A DNA stretch of 64,000 bases from Hyalangium ruber. Lineage in GTDB: Bacteria > Myxococcota > Myxococcia > Myxococcales > Myxococcaceae. Below, one piece after another: positions 11,336 to 17,609 of the stretch (the stretch's first letter is position 1; each line of letters opens with the position of its first letter). The notes below the pieces were generated by a model. It saw only the letters and a list, made by a program, of their open reading frames with translations, was not told the origin of the DNA and did not search any database. The stretch is taken from the NCBI RefSeq assembly GCF_034259325.1, contig NZ_JAXIVS010000001.1:186001-250000 (forward strand), read 5' to 3'. A program made the position numbers and the translations under genes.

Positions 11336-12817
11336 TCACCGAGCCCCTTGCCTGCGCCGCAACCGCCGCAGCACCAGGGGTAGGCCCAGTAGCGCCAGAG
11401 GGGCCAGAGCCGACATGCCGCTGCCACAGCCGCAGCCCCCCTCCGCCGTCTCGTCCCCGCCTCCAGGCCTCGTGCCCGCGTCGGCGCTCGTCCCGGAGTC
11501 GGGCGTGCCCTCGCTCGGGCCTCCGTCCGGGCCGGAGACCGAGCCATCCGGGTTTCCCGGCGTCGTCCCTCCGTCCTCATCCGAGCCTCCCGCGTCGGGC
11601 CCAGAGCTGCCCGCATCCGCTCCCGCGCCCCCATCCGGTGACGAACCGGCATCCGGCGTCCCCGCATCGACAGCAACGCACGAGCCGTCCTGGCAAGTGC
11701 CTCCTGGGCAGGCGGTGCCATCCGCCACGGAGGGGAAGGTACACGTCCCCATCGGGCTACAGGCCACGGTGTGGCACGCATCGGGAGGTGGGCAGTCCGA
11801 GTCCTGCCGGCACTGCGCGCAGGCGAACTCGCCATTCTGGTTCACACAGAAGGGCGTCGCCGCCTGGCAGGGGGTGCATGCGGCTCCGCAGTAGAGTTCC
11901 GTGTTGCAGGGCGAGCACAGCGCCGCGCTGTTGCAATGGGTGCCCGGAGCACAGCCGCTGCTTCCTGGCGCGTTGACGAACTGCCGCTCGCACTGCGTGC
12001 ATTGCGTGAGATCGATCGACGAGGGGTGTCCTCGCTCGGTCTGATAGAACAGCTCGGGCGCGAAGAGCACGAAGCCCTGGTCCCTGAGATTGATGACGGG
12101 CGCCTGCTGTGCCGGGCGCTCGAAGTCCGTGAACGCGCCCTTGAGGAACGACATCTCGAGCGCGGCATGCTCGTAATTCTCGGTGTAGAGCACCTCGATA
12201 CCGTAGAGCCCCGGCTGGTTGAAGACCACGCTGTTCGTGGTTCGCCAGGCGGAGAATCCAATCTGCGGTGGCCGGGTGATGACCGCGTAGGCCGTCTGGT
12301 TCCTGTCGAAGAGCGTCAGGCTGACGGAATCATCCGTGTAGAAGCCCAAATGCACCGGCTGGCTCACCCAGTCGTTCGGCACGGCAAGCAATCCACGCAG
12401 GCGCGTGGCGAAGGAGGTGGTGGTGCCGTTGTAAGCGAAGCCACAACCGCCAACGCCACAACCTGGTACCGCGTTGGTGAAGTCGCCGTAGCTCGCCTGC
12501 ATCCCCGAGCTGTTGTTGTTCGACAGGTCCAGCGGCGTGCGGAGAACACTGGTGAGCCGAGATCCCGCCTGCGTCTCCATGAAGGCGTTGATGCCCGCGT
12601 TATAGGCCGCTGCGTTCTGGGGAAAATCGGCTGCGGGATTCTGGGAGCTGCTCGAGGCAGAGCAGAGCCCCGTCCCCTGCTGGTTTGGCAGCGGTGCGAT
12701 GGGATCCCCAGTGAGGACGACCTGGATCGGCTGGGCCTGAGCGGAGTCAGGCGCCAACCCTCCCCCCAAGGCGACAAGGACGAACAGGGACACGCGGAAG
12801 GCTGACGACAGGAGCAT
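11336..12817 (-). CDS. TraA-family outer-membrane-exchange-like surface protein with MYXO-CTERM anchor
   Basis: 493 residues. There is an N-terminal signal peptide (cleavage near AQA). Residues 30-250 resemble the PA14-like lectin domain of TraA-family proteins (GFYTDDSVSLTLFD, then GLYGIEVLYTENYEHAALE). A Cys-rich stalk follows (about 260-385, CxxC spacing, roughly three repeat units), then an Asp/Gly/Pro low-complexity linker. The C-terminus is a Gly-Cys sorting signal (GGCGCG), a hydrophobic helix and an Arg-rich tail, as in MYXO-CTERM proteins. The stalk looks shorter than that of the well-studied TraA. No traB-like OmpA gene is adjacent, so it is probably a paralogue rather than the exchange receptor itself. 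Confidence 0.7.
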   Translation of the reverse strand: MLLSSAFRVSLFVLVALGGGLAPDSAQAQPIQVVLTGDPIAPLPNQQGTGLCSASSSSQNPAADFPQNAAAYNAGINAFMETQAGSRLTSVLRTPLDLSNNNSSGMQASYGDFTNAVPGCGVGGCGFAYNGTTTSFATRLRGLLAVPNDWVSQPVHLGFYTDDSVSLTLFDRNQTAYAVITRPPQIGFSAWRTTNSVVFNQPGLYGIEVLYTENYEHAALEMSFLKGAFTDFERPAQQAPVINLRDQGFVLFAPELFYQTERGHPSSIDLTQCTQCERQFVNAPGSSGCAPGTHCNSAALCSPCNTELYCGAACTPCQAATPFCVNQNGEFACAQCRQDSDCPPPDACHTVACSPMGTCTFPSVADGTACPGGTCQDGSCVAVDAGTPDAGSSPDGGAGADAGSSGPDAGGSDEDGGTTPGNPDGSVSGPDGGPSEGTPDSGTSADAGTRPGGGDETAEGGCGCGSGMSALAPLALLGLPLVLRRLRRRQGAR

Positions 12818-15919: not shown

Positions 15920-16684
15920 TCAAGGGGTAGAGCGCCCGCCGATCTCGGGGAAGCGCTCGTAGGCCCGCAGAAGCGTTTCCAAATGAGCGGGCTTGTCGAG
16001 ATCGAGCGGCGCATTCGTGAGCCGGACAACCCACCCGCTCGTCGCGGTGCGCAGCGAGCGCGCCAGCAGCTCGGCGTCGCGTGCGGGGTCCGGGAAACCG
16101 ATGGCTTCTGCGGCAGCAGCCGACCAGTAATTCACCCATCCGAGGCGGTGCGGAATCTCTGGCGCTCGGATTTTCTCTGGGAGCTTGAGCGCTGGCAGCC
16201 CGCGCGGTGGGGGTTGCGGATTCGTCGCCCAGTTTTTCGTCTGGCGCGCGATATCCACTCCCGCACTGAACGGCGTCGCATGCCCCCAAAATGCGCTAGC
16301 ACCTTCCGCGATGCTCACCAGCACCTCGGCAGCCGCCGCGATGCCGTCTCCGGTCAGGGGCAACACCGCATGAATATCAAGCTGGGCTTGGCCACCCGGC
16401 GAGTGGCCCGCAGGTAGTTCCAACCCAGTCACCGTAACTCGGAAGTCATCATCCCCGTTGCGGAGGAGTGGAAATCCACGCCCGTTTGGCCTTCCTCGGG
16501 CGAGCCATGCTTCTCGCTGCGGCACTGGGACGCGCTGCCCGTCACTAGAAATCGTCCACTCCAGGCGCAAGCCAGGAAGTGCGCGCTCCATTCCCTGAAC
16601 AACTGCCAACGGGCGGCCATCATTGCCCACGAGGGCGGGCGCGTAGACGATAATGGCAAGTTCATTCTCTTGTGTAGCTGGCAT
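15920..16684 (-). CDS. DUF5953-like protein, candidate immunity protein
   Basis: 254 residues, ATG 16684, only one base after the stop of the upstream DUF6310-like gene, so translation is almost certainly coupled. The product has no signal peptide. The sequence pattern (IIVYAPALVGNDGRPLAVV at the N-terminus, RLGWVNYWSAAAAEAIGFP, and VVRLTNAPLDLDKPAHL near the C-terminus) matches my memory of the myxobacterial DUF5953 family, which commonly sits beside DUF6310. A cytoplasmic partner placed right after a toxin-like gene is the usual arrangement of an immunity protein. The immunity role is inference. Confidence 0.7.
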   Translation of the reverse strand: MPATQENELAIIVYAPALVGNDGRPLAVVQGMERALPGLRLEWTISSDGQRVPVPQREAWLARGRPNGRGFPLLRNGDDDFRVTVTGLELPAGHSPGGQAQLDIHAVLPLTGDGIAAAAEVLVSIAEGASAFWGHATPFSAGVDIARQTKNWATNPQPPPRGLPALKLPEKIRAPEIPHRLGWVNYWSAAAAEAIGFPDPARDAELLARSLRTATSGWVVRLTNAPLDLDKPAHLETLLRAYERFPEIGGRSTP

Positions 16685-16685
16685 C

Positions 16686-17609
16686 TCAGCACCACTTCAT
16701 GACTTCGATGATTCCATCGAGATCCGGGGCCGCGAGTTCCAGAGCGGCTTTGTGCGCGAGGCTCCGCACGCCAACCCGGAAGTCAAATCCACAAGCCAGA
16801 GCGAGAGCGCGCTCATGCCGCAACTTCTCTACCTGACTCTCGACCACAATGGCTCGAAGGTCGGGCGGGTACGTGTCGAAATTGTCGGTCTTGACCTCCC
16901 ACAGCGTGCGCGTGGCCAGTTGTAGCGCGTCAAAGTGCTTGCCATTGACGAGCACATCCCAGCCGGGAAAGCTGTTCTGCGGAATTGGGTCGGCGCATTC
17001 GTTGTGCGGATCATTGCCGCCCCGATGCGAAGCCCGCTTGGGCATGCATTCGGGGCGACGATCATGAGGATCCGAGGAGACTGGCGGGTCTGGGGGAAAC
17101 CAATCCCTACCCAACGGGGACCCTTCCCGCTTGGCCTTTCGATTCGCGACGGATTCCTGCTCGTTGGATGGCTGTGCTTGGGTCTTGGGCTTCCCACGCT
17201 CGCGGGAGGCGTTCCGCTCATGCGCATCCAGTTCCTCTTTTATGGCGACTGCCACCGCCACCACGCCAACAACAATCACTGCTCCGACGACGATCTCAGG
17301 TGCCGCAAAGACACAGAGCCCCATGCCCACGGCAGCTGCCCCTGCGGAGGCGACAGCGCACCTTCCTGTGACATCGCGGAACTTGACCCGATCACGGTCG
17401 AGAGCGTGGTAGCACTTCTCTACCAGGCTCGACCATTCGTTGGAGGCTTCTTGCACCACGCAGTGCCCATCATCCGTCCAGGGGTACTGCGCCGCCCGCT
17501 GAAGGTTGGCGATCCTCGCGTCCTGGGCGAGTGGCACTGTCGGGCTCGGCTCCATCGTTGCGCAGGCCGAAAGAAGTAACAGAAGTGCGATGCAGGCTCG
17601 GTGCAGCAT
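16686..17609 (-). CDS. DUF6310-like lipoprotein with C-terminal nuclease-like domain, candidate SitA-type toxin
   Basis: 307 residues from ATG 17609 (GAGGT upstream). The lipobox LLSAC gives a lipidated Cys16. A region with Cys50, Cys66, Cys84 and Cys99 follows, then a long hydrophobic stretch (about 86-123), a charged linker (125-200) and a C-terminal domain. The C-terminal domain has Asp227 (FDALQ) and EVK at 238-240 on the next strand (LWEVKT), the spacing of a PD-(D/E)xK nuclease core. It ends in Cys307. The overall pattern fits DUF6310 of myxobacteria. Lipoprotein plus nuclease-like tail plus downstream partner resembles SitA polymorphic toxins transferred by outer-membrane exchange (inference). 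Confidence 0.75.
   Translation of the reverse strand: MLHRACIALLLLLSACATMEPSPTVPLAQDARIANLQRAAQYPWTDDGHCVVQEASNEWSSLVEKCYHALDRDRVKFRDVTGRCAVASAGAAAVGMGLCVFAAPEIVVGAVIVVGVVAVAVAIKEELDAHERNASRERGKPKTQAQPSNEQESVANRKAKREGSPLGRDWFPPDPPVSSDPHDRRPECMPKRASHRGGNDPHNECADPIPQNSFPGWDVLVNGKHFDALQLATRTLWEVKTDNFDTYPPDLRAIVVESQVEKLRHERALALACGFDFRVGVRSLAHKAALELAAPDLDGIIEVMKWC

What the first reader, a model, noticed from the sequence alone, without database searches (positions are those of the whole stretch)
15920..17609. Lipoprotein toxin/immunity-like pair resembling SitA-type kin-discrimination toxins
Seen: a lipoprotein (lipobox LLSAC) with a hydrophobic middle and a C-terminal domain carrying Asp227 and E238-x-K240 in PD-(D/E)xK spacing, followed after one base by a cytoplasmic partner gene. 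Known: myxobacterial SitA toxins are lipoproteins passed between cells by TraA/TraB outer-membrane exchange, with polymorphic C-termini and a downstream immunity gene. Inferred: this DUF6310/DUF5953 pair may be a nuclease toxin and its immunity protein. A sitB-like helper gene is not visible, so it may be a different delivery type.
Basis: partly seen in the sequence, partly recalled or inferred. Interest (0 to 1): 0.75.

Follow-up and report, generated by a model that had tools for sequence, protein, structure and literature searches.

The report
Lipoprotein nuclease toxin and its antidote
A myxobacterial gene pair appears to encode a membrane-anchored nucleic-acid-cutting toxin and its matching antidote, present in many differing copies, which the bacteria probably use to tell their own kind from close relatives.

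Summary
Observation confirmed; toxin/immunity reading strongly supported. 16686-17609(-) encodes a lipoprotein ending in DUF6310; 15920-16684(-) is its DUF5953 partner. High-confidence models of both halves independently match the two halves of one solved toxin-immunity complex, TseT-TsiT (Tox-REase-5/Imm52). Asp227 and Lys240 are invariant in 154 distinct pairs; position 238 is E/D in 153. The genome holds 13 such pairs. The N-terminal domain also occurs with two other C-termini and other downstream genes; DUF6310-DUF5953 occurs on three other kinds of N-terminus. Toxin genes are degraded more often than immunity genes (18 of 119 against 2 of 103). Of 57 genomes with DUF6310, 54 have a full TraA (phylogeny confounds this). 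New: the toxin domain covaries with the first two thirds of the immunity protein (r 0.69), not with its own N-terminus (0.20) or the immunity protein's last third (0.19); in a sister family, 11 of 13 loci with a replaced cassette keep a ~100-bp DUF5953 3' scar. Toxicity and delivery by outer-membrane exchange are inferred. Membership of a named SitA family is open: SitA5 tested and not met, SitA7 not excluded.

The parts
16686..17609 (-). toxin gene: 307-aa lipoprotein with C-terminal DUF6310 nuclease-fold domain
17562..17609 (-). signal peptide and lipobox LSAC (residues 1-16); +2 Ala, +7 Ser, outer-membrane type by the rule quoted in PMC5562445
   Evidence: a simple lipobox rule is met in 107 of 154 distinct homologues (several of the misses show a lipobox by eye), +2 K/D in 0 of 107 and +7 A in 5 of 107
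17076..17564 (-). N-terminal 'ED-A' domain (residues ~16-178), candidate escort domain; also found joined to two other C-terminal domains
17238..17360 (-). hydrophobic stretch of ED-A (residues ~84-124), possible membrane-crossing element
   Evidence: sequence; seen by eye in the ED-A homologues printed
16689..17066 (-). DUF6310 domain (residues 182-307), PD-(D/E)xK nuclease fold resembling TseT (Tox-REase-5)
   Evidence: model m3637518813ee
16929..16931 (-). Asp227, predicted catalytic
   Evidence: invariant in 154 of 154 distinct pairs
16890..16898 (-). Glu238-Val239-Lys240, predicted catalytic E-x-K
   Evidence: E/D in 153 of 154, K240 in 154 of 154
16797..16886 (-). variable segment 242-271 (stretch and long helix after the active site), candidate specificity face
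   Evidence: helix 72-95 of the model; residues 242-261 covary most with immunity residues ~40-100, r up to 0.57
15920..16684 (-). immunity gene: 254-aa DUF5953 protein resembling TsiT/Imm52
16184..16684 (-). specificity part of the immunity gene (first two thirds), mean identity 52% among 116 trios, covaries with the toxin domain
15923..16183 (-). conserved 3' third of the immunity gene (77% mean identity), candidate recombination arm; its last ~100 bp survive as a scar in loci of a sister family

Best explanation
The pair is a polymorphic toxin-immunity locus. The lipoprotein is exported, sits in the outer membrane and is passed to touching cells, most likely by TraA/TraB outer-membrane exchange. 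Its N-terminal domain then helps the C-terminal PD-(D/E)xK nuclease into the cytoplasm of the recipient, where it cuts nucleic acid. The cytoplasmic DUF5953 protein binds the nuclease domain and protects sister cells with the same allele. The 13 differing pairs of this genome would act as part of an identity code. New specificities arise when the cassette [nuclease domain + first two thirds of the immunity gene] is exchanged between the conserved N-terminal domain and the conserved 3' end of the immunity gene. Supported by data here: nuclease and immunity folds, pairing, polymorphism, asymmetric decay, cassette mosaicism. Inferred: toxicity, neutralisation, OME delivery, cytoplasmic entry, role in kin discrimination.
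For: Structure: both halves match the two halves of TseT-TsiT, found independently. Active site kept in 154 distinct pairs. Pairing: DUF6310 and DUF5953 occur in the same 13 of 60 genomes; 101 of 104 full DUF6310 domains are followed by a near-full DUF5953; 82 of 82 DUF6310 frames in the 80 named loci kept have DUF5953 near by on the same strand (this set was found by an active-site motif and so favours intact toxins). Asymmetry: 18 of 119 immunity genes lack a full toxin, 2 of 103 toxins lack a near-full immunity gene, Fisher p 6e-4. Polymorphism: ED-A with other C-termini and downstream genes; a sister lipoprotein N-terminus (ED-C) carries DUF6310+DUF5953 or another domain with an ankyrin-repeat partner. 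Cassette: CTD against immunity N-part r 0.69, CTD against immunity C-third 0.19, CTD against own N-terminus 0.20, n=116; silent-site identity 0.62 in the flanks against 0.48 in the cassette, flank higher in 36 of 36 pairs of 9 own-genome loci. Delivery: full TraA and TraB in the own genome; a full TraA in 54 of 57 genomes with DUF6310 and 8 of 138 without. A Tox-REase-5 toxin (SitA3-Mf1) has been shown to work by OME in PMC8546572 (passages).
Against: No activity, transfer or neutralisation was tested. Sequence profiles alone do not join DUF6310 to Tox-REase-5 (hhalign probability 11% and 2%) and join DUF5953 to Imm52 only moderately (61% and 51%); no Foldseek match of the toxin model reaches E 0.001 (best 3.7e-3). 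The TraA association is confounded by phylogeny: all 57 are in one family, though within its 96 genomes the table is 54/3/8/31. G119 has DUF6310 but no TraA match, G114 only a partial one, and G008 has no TraA and a different, transglutaminase-bearing N-terminus. The N-terminal domain (~163 aa) is shorter than the ~375-aa escort domains reported (PMC8546572), and class B proteins lack the hydrophobic stretch. One full toxin (L324) has no DUF5953 beside it. Over all pairs of the 116 trios the silent-site contrast is weak and the N-terminal domain is not above the toxin domain (ED 0.515, CTD 0.534, immunity N-part 0.463, C-part 0.559), so the recombination reading rests on the own-genome loci, the mosaics and the scars.
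Confidence: 0.77

Rival explanations
1. It is a genuine member of an already described SitA family, most likely SitA7, whose toxin domain is called a predicted, non-modular DNase in PMC8546572 without a family name in the passages seen; then only the domain assignment and the cassette analysis are new.
For: Several features asked of SitA are met: lipoprotein, C-terminal nuclease fold, immunity-like gene downstream, many alleles per genome, traAB host. SitA7's toxin domain is not named in the passages that I could read.
Against: Escort domains are reported as ~375 aa against ~163 here. SitA7 is reported as not modular, whereas ED-A carries three kinds of C-terminus. The SitA5 escort model does not match. 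The family-defining papers are not held.
Confidence: 0.3
2. The toxin and immunity pair is real but the lipoprotein reaches other cells by another route (vesicles, a Tad-like or other contact-dependent apparatus), not by TraA/TraB exchange.
For: The same domain pair sits on a transglutaminase protein in G008, which has no TraA match, so the pair is not tied to OME in all hosts. Class B N-termini lack a hydrophobic stretch.
Against: 54 of 57 DUF6310 genomes hold a full TraA; no secretion gene was recognised in the 12 neighbouring frames scanned; lipoproteins of outer-membrane type are the known OME cargo (PMC5562445).
Confidence: 0.15
3. The pair is not for antagonism: a lipoprotein-anchored nuclease defends against phage DNA or processes environmental DNA, with DUF5953 keeping it silent in the producer.
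For: PD-(D/E)xK nucleases are common in defence and DNA metabolism; the fold list also holds restriction enzymes and CRISPR-linked nucleases.
Against: Domain and partner swaps, allele-specific covariation and asymmetric decay fit toxin-immunity loci; both halves match an effector-immunity complex.
Confidence: 0.05

Closest known systems
[quoted passage not shown]
   Same: Lipoprotein of outer-membrane type, C-terminal nuclease domain, immunity gene directly downstream, many alleles per genome, host with traAB. The window genome also holds SitA5-escort proteins with Tox-REase-5 followed by Imm52.
   Different: N-terminal domain ~163 aa and not matched by the SitA5 escort model; no profile similarity to 5 SitA5-type N-termini (probability 0.1%); no phmmer hit of ED-A in 30 Tox-REase-5 proteins; no sitB.
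TseT-TsiT (PA3907-PA3908), T6SS effector with Tox-REase-5 domain and Imm52-family immunity protein
   Same: Both folds. Toxin: Z 11.4 (9oz0_B, rmsd 5.7, 127 aligned) and 11.1 (7dym_A, rmsd 3.2, 115 aligned). Partner: Z 14.3 (9oz0_A, rmsd 3.3, 207 aligned), 14.2 (7dym_B, rmsd 3.8, 209 aligned), 12.6 (6jdp). D and E-x-K layout (weak hhalign alignment).
   Different: Only 10-15% identical in the structure alignments; delivered by T6SS, not as a lipoprotein; the Pfam scan does not list Tox-REase-5 or Imm52 for the window proteins.
Alternative cassette on the ED-C lipoproteins (13 loci among L291-L315): domain with a weak Ntox16 match + ankyrin-repeat partner
   Same: Same locus plan in genomes that also hold DUF6310; occupies the slot otherwise held by DUF6310 + DUF5953, with a DUF5953 3' scar in 11 of 13.
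   Different: No detected similarity of toxin domain or partner to DUF6310/DUF5953; ED-C shows no profile similarity to ED-A. The Ntox16 match is below the Pfam cut-off in one protein and absent in the other one scanned.
CdiA-CT/CdiI toxins of the PD-(D/E)xK fold (4g6v, 4zqu, 4g6u)
   Same: Fold of the toxin domain, Z 5.3-5.8, rmsd 3.3-4.2, 96-107 aligned; modular C-terminal toxin plus immunity gene.
   Different: Lower structural similarity than TseT, in a range where unrelated folds also score; delivered from a CDI surface protein.

Membership tests
SitA toxins (broad sense) | type II signal peptide with lipobox, no +2 Lys or +7 Ala | tested here: met
   window: LSAC, +2 Ala, +7 Ser (rule); 107 of 154 homologues by a simple rule, +7 A in 5 of these
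SitA toxins (broad sense) | C-terminal polymorphic nuclease domain with cognate immunity gene directly downstream | tested here: met
   by sequence and fold only: fold matches, one-base spacing, three kinds of C-terminus on ED-A; activity and cognate immunity not tested
SitA toxins (broad sense) | found only in species with traAB | tested here: inconclusive
   own genome has TraA and TraB; 54 of 57 DUF6310 genomes have TraA over the curated cut-off; G114 partial, G119 and G008 none
SitA toxins (broad sense) | TraA-dependent transfer and killing of non-immune cells | not testable with these tools
   needs competition assays
SitA5 family | SitA5 escort domain (NF050093) | tested here: not met
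   no match in the window toxin at E <= 1 while two Tox-REase-5 lipoproteins of the same genome match at 3.5e-70 and 7.8e-103
SitA1/2, 3, 4, 6, 7 families | homology to that family's ~375-aa escort domain | not testable with these tools
   the defining papers and sequences are not held; no NCBIfam model of these families appeared in the scans made
PD-(D/E)xK nuclease fold | alpha-beta core with D-x(n)-(D/E)-x-K | tested here: met
   model with that order of elements, matches, D227/E238/K240 conserved
Tox-REase-5 (PF15648) | profile match above the family cut-off | tested here: not met
   Pfam scan at E <= 1 does not list it; hhalign probability 11% and 2%. Structural likeness only
Imm52 (PF15579) | profile match above the family cut-off | tested here: not met
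   not listed at E <= 1; hhalign 61% and 51%; fold match to the imm52 protein TsiT, Z 12.6-14.3

The most novel reading that the evidence does not exclude
DUF6310/DUF5953 loci are exchange slots for kin-discrimination cassettes whose right-hand recombination arm lies inside the immunity gene. The conserved lipoprotein N-terminus and the conserved 3' third of the immunity gene flank a variable cassette of toxin domain plus immunity N-part, so a crossover swaps toxin and antidote specificity together and can install an unrelated toxin with its own partner, leaving a ~100-bp immunity-gene scar. The N-terminal domains (ED-A, ED-C, class B) would be further escort-domain families beyond the six described, some with less than half their length.
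Probability: 0.5. Interest if true: 0.72.

Novelty: new variant of a known kind. Interest (0 to 1): 0.62.

Why it matters
It proposes a function for two families of unknown function that occur together in social myxobacteria (up to 21 DUF6310 matches in one genome), ties them to a solved toxin-immunity complex, and suggests how such loci can make new self/non-self types without a lethal intermediate: toxin and antidote specificity travel as one cassette between two conserved arms. That makes the origin of new kin groups testable by mapping crossovers in strains, and the short N-terminal domains would set a lower size for whatever carries the toxin across the envelope.

Tried and rejected
Sequence search of solved structures with profiles of either domain gave nothing significant; 4rho, later the top fold match of the partner, was listed there at E 0.13 over 31 residues. 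hhalign between DUF6310 and Tox-REase-5 stayed weak (11%, then 2% with more rows), so I do not claim sequence homology. NCBIfam and Pfam gave no name for the N-terminal domain. Profile comparison of ED-A with ED-C, with 5 SitA5-type N-termini and with one other N-terminus gave 0.1-0.3%; ED-C with the SitA5-type N-termini gave 7% over 17 columns, which I do not read as homology. MYXO-CTERM hits alone did not reveal TraA; OmpA hits next to a Cys-rich frame did. No DUF5953 scar was found beside the ED-A loci with other C-termini L250, L251, L252 (0 of 3), nor beside L324; L249 ends with its contig and was not searched; L312, a broken ED-C locus, keeps 70 bp of it at 94%. Other ED-A frames without DUF6310 are broken copies or a contig end (L240, L245, L248/L253, L249, L254) and are not counted as polymorphism. 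An idea that the hydrophobic stretch is required was dropped because class B toxins lack it. Considered and set aside: ordinary toxin-antitoxin system (the lipoprotein signal argues against it).

Rows dropped before counts: one search used 41 distinct of 43 DUF6310 and 41 distinct of 43 DUF5953 rows, 30 Tox-REase-5 rows, and 26 of the 30 Imm52 loci fetched; one search kept the best 80 of 121 loci; one search used 57 of 79 toxin stretches and 58 of 81 immunity stretches, plus the window's own; one search kept 154 distinct pairs with near-full domains, 116 with ED-A; the 13 alternative ED-C loci are those among the 30 loci fetched, whose list had more matches, and one of them (L300) has a shortened toxin domain. 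One search used all 131 rows for DUF6310 ('full' = at least 115 of 126 positions) and, for DUF5953, the rows down to weak fragments plus one contig-end stub ('near-full' = at least 215 of 233), leaving out the remaining printed fragments and those the tool did not print; the Fisher test left out G008 and the contig-cut G003:C686. Some short remnants may be assembly errors. Some G genomes duplicate named records (for example G105 and L171), and only identical rows were removed. The Mantel and silent-site comparisons are between related sequences, so their p-values are not independent tests.
Full report
WHAT IS THERE. The window (G000:C1:186001-250000 of a 10.77-Mb myxobacterial genome) carries on its minus strand a 307-aa lipoprotein gene (16686-17609) and, after one base, a 254-aa gene (15920-16684). 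Pfam names DUF6310 (residues 182-307) and DUF5953 (20-253) as the only matches over their cut-offs. No paper in the held library mentions either DUF name.

IT IS ONE OF MANY PARALOGOUS PAIRS. The own genome gives 16 matches to the toxin and 15 to the partner, fragments included; 13 places hold both, one of them with an internally deleted toxin (L016). In 60 relatives both families occur in the same 13 genomes, with up to 21 DUF6310 matches in one genome, fragments included (G028). In a wider set 57 of 195 genomes of the phylum have DUF6310, all in one family and 9 genera. Named hosts include Myxococcus, Corallococcus, Archangium, Hyalangium, Pyxidicoccus and Citreicoccus.

FOLDS. AlphaFold2 models made from 58 and 59 aligned rows reach mean pLDDT 91.7 (toxin domain) and 93.8 (partner). 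The toxin model has the helix-strand order that I expect of a PD-(D/E)xK core. Its best matches in the PDB are TseT chains 7dym_A and 9oz0_B (Foldseek E 3.7e-3 and 7.4e-3, probability 1.00, none under 0.001; VIA Z 11.1 and 11.4, next 7.9), followed among others by XisH proteins, Card1/Can2 nucleases, restriction enzymes and three CdiA toxins. The partner's best matches are 4rho (a hypothetical Burkholderia protein), 7drg (PA0821) and TsiT (9oz0_A, 7dym_B, 6jdp 'imm52 family protein TsiT'), Z 12.6-14.3, against 5.3 for the next entry. Thus two separate searches reach the two halves of one solved toxin-immunity complex. TseT is listed as a PD-(D/E)xK, Tox-REase-5 DNase in PMC9990079 (passages). 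Sequence profiles alone give weak to moderate support (DUF5953-Imm52 61% and 51%, DUF6310-Tox-REase-5 11% and 2%; mismatched or reversed controls 1.3% or less). In 154 distinct pairs D227 and K240 are invariant and position 238 is E, D or K in 141, 12 and 1.

POLYMORPHISM. A search of 36 genomes with the N-terminal domain alone (residues 19-180, 'ED-A') found proteins with that domain and other C-termini: L250 and L251 carry an unnamed ~100-aa domain with an overlapping 149-aa downstream gene, and L252 a short Cys-rich domain with an overlapping, different downstream frame; Pfam names none of these C-termini or downstream products. Conversely, DUF6310+DUF5953 sits on short Pro-rich lipoproteins without the hydrophobic stretch (class B), on a third lipoprotein N-terminus 'ED-C' (L171, Archangium violaceum), and in G008 on a 1105-aa transglutaminase protein. 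ED-C in turn carries either DUF6310+DUF5953 or an alternative domain (weak Ntox16 match, E 2e-4, in one of two proteins scanned), which is followed 6 bp later by a 209-210-aa partner in 13 of the 13 such loci fetched; two partners scanned are ankyrin-repeat proteins.

ASYMMETRIC DECAY. In the 13 genomes, 104 full DUF6310 domains were found; 101 have a near-full DUF5953 match 57-66 bp further on, one has none (G027:C16, L324), one has a broken partner and one is cut by a contig end. Of 120 near-full DUF5953 genes, 19 lack a full toxin: 15 keep a toxin remnant at their 5' side, 3 keep none, and one is the divergent G008. Without the two special cases this is 18 of 119 against 2 of 103 (Fisher p 6e-4). 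Losing the toxin while keeping the antidote is what a toxin-immunity locus predicts. L298 shows the same: most of the toxin domain is gone and the partner is complete.

CASSETTE STRUCTURE. For 116 distinct ED-A/DUF6310/DUF5953 trios, distances of the toxin domain correlate with those of the first two thirds of the immunity protein (r 0.69) but poorly with its last third (0.19) or with the toxin's own N-terminal domain (0.20). Mean identities are 60% (ED), 57% (toxin domain), 52% and 77% (the two immunity parts). Pairs exist with ED 89%, toxin domain 43%, immunity N-part 45%, immunity C-part 81%, and the reverse (46%, 81%, 83%, 87%). For 9 own-genome loci, four-fold silent sites are more alike in the flanks (0.616) than in the cassette (0.482) in 36 of 36 pairs (the pairs share loci). 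Over all pairs of the 116 trios this contrast is weak and the ED is not above the toxin domain (0.515 against 0.534). Toxin residues 242-261 covary most with about residues 40-100 of the immunity protein and hardly with residues beyond 180. In 11 of the 13 alternative ED-C loci, the last ~100 bp of a DUF5953 gene lie about 20 bp after the partner gene, at 85.6-92.8% DNA identity, each starting at nucleotide 652-657 of 756 (reversed control 0 hits). The shared breakpoint could be one old event spread with the locus. I read this as replacement of the cassette between the N-terminal domain and the 3' end of the immunity gene.

DELIVERY. The own genome has a full TraA (NF033759, 1058 bits) directly followed by a full TraB (NF033763, 948 bits) on contig C19. 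TraA over the curated cut-off occurs in 62 of 195 genomes and in 54 of the 57 with DUF6310; exceptions are G114 (partial, 680 bits), G119 and G008 (none). Eight genomes have TraA without DUF6310. Phylogeny confounds this, so OME delivery stays an inference from anatomy and distribution. The same genome also has SitA5-escort lipoproteins with Tox-REase-5 followed by Imm52, and PMC8546572 reports OME killing by a SitA3 allele with a Tox-REase-5-type domain (PF15648; passages), so fold relatives of this pair are at work in the SitA system.

COMPARISON AND NOVELTY. It looks built to work like a SitA toxin. Whether it belongs to one of the six SitA families cannot be settled here: SitA5 is tested and not met, the other escort sequences and the 2019 and 2020 papers are not held, and SitA7, a 'predicted DNase' whose domain is not named in the passages seen, is the best candidate. 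Its reported lack of modularity and the reported escort length of ~375 aa argue against it. From PMC8546572 I saw passages and one section; from PMC5562445, PMC6372800, PMC10047993, PMC10433427, PMC9990079 and PMC9635880 passages; from PMC12077131 the outline with abstract and passages (its four toxin-immunity pairs are PAAR-linked, Toxin1 being an AHH nuclease, so they are not this family).

Noticed in passing
window 11336-12817 (-): A TraA paralogue (TIGR04566 TraA N-terminal domain, 373.6 bits; only positions 1-328 of the full TraA model) with its own MYXO-CTERM-like tail, 3.1 kb downstream of the pair, with no TraB recognised beside it; similar N-terminal-only matches occur in 11 other genomes of the listing.
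   Followed up: partly
L332 2404-6200 (G000:C19): The window genome's full traA-traB genes.
   Followed up: yes
L067, L075 (G000:C14, C9): SitA5-escort lipoproteins with Tox-REase-5, with Imm52 matches directly downstream, in the same genome.
   Followed up: partly
L291-L315 (13 loci): ED-C lipoproteins with another C-terminal domain (weak Ntox16 match in one of two scanned) and a 209-210-aa partner in 13 of 13 loci, 11 with a DUF5953 3' scar.
   Followed up: yes
L324 1183-2301 (G027:C16): A toxin whose signal region resembles, by eye, that of a Tox-REase-5 lipoprotein (L055), joined to ED-A and a DUF6310 domain, with no DUF5953 beside it.
   Followed up: partly
L017 (G000:C4): A DUF6310 gene broken near its 3' end, the last ~46 codons lying about 2.9 kb further on, with no DUF5953 match beside it.
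   Followed up: no
L015/L008 (G000:C13): One paralogue has Lys in place of the conserved Glu/Asp238 and may be inactive while its immunity gene is intact.
   Followed up: no
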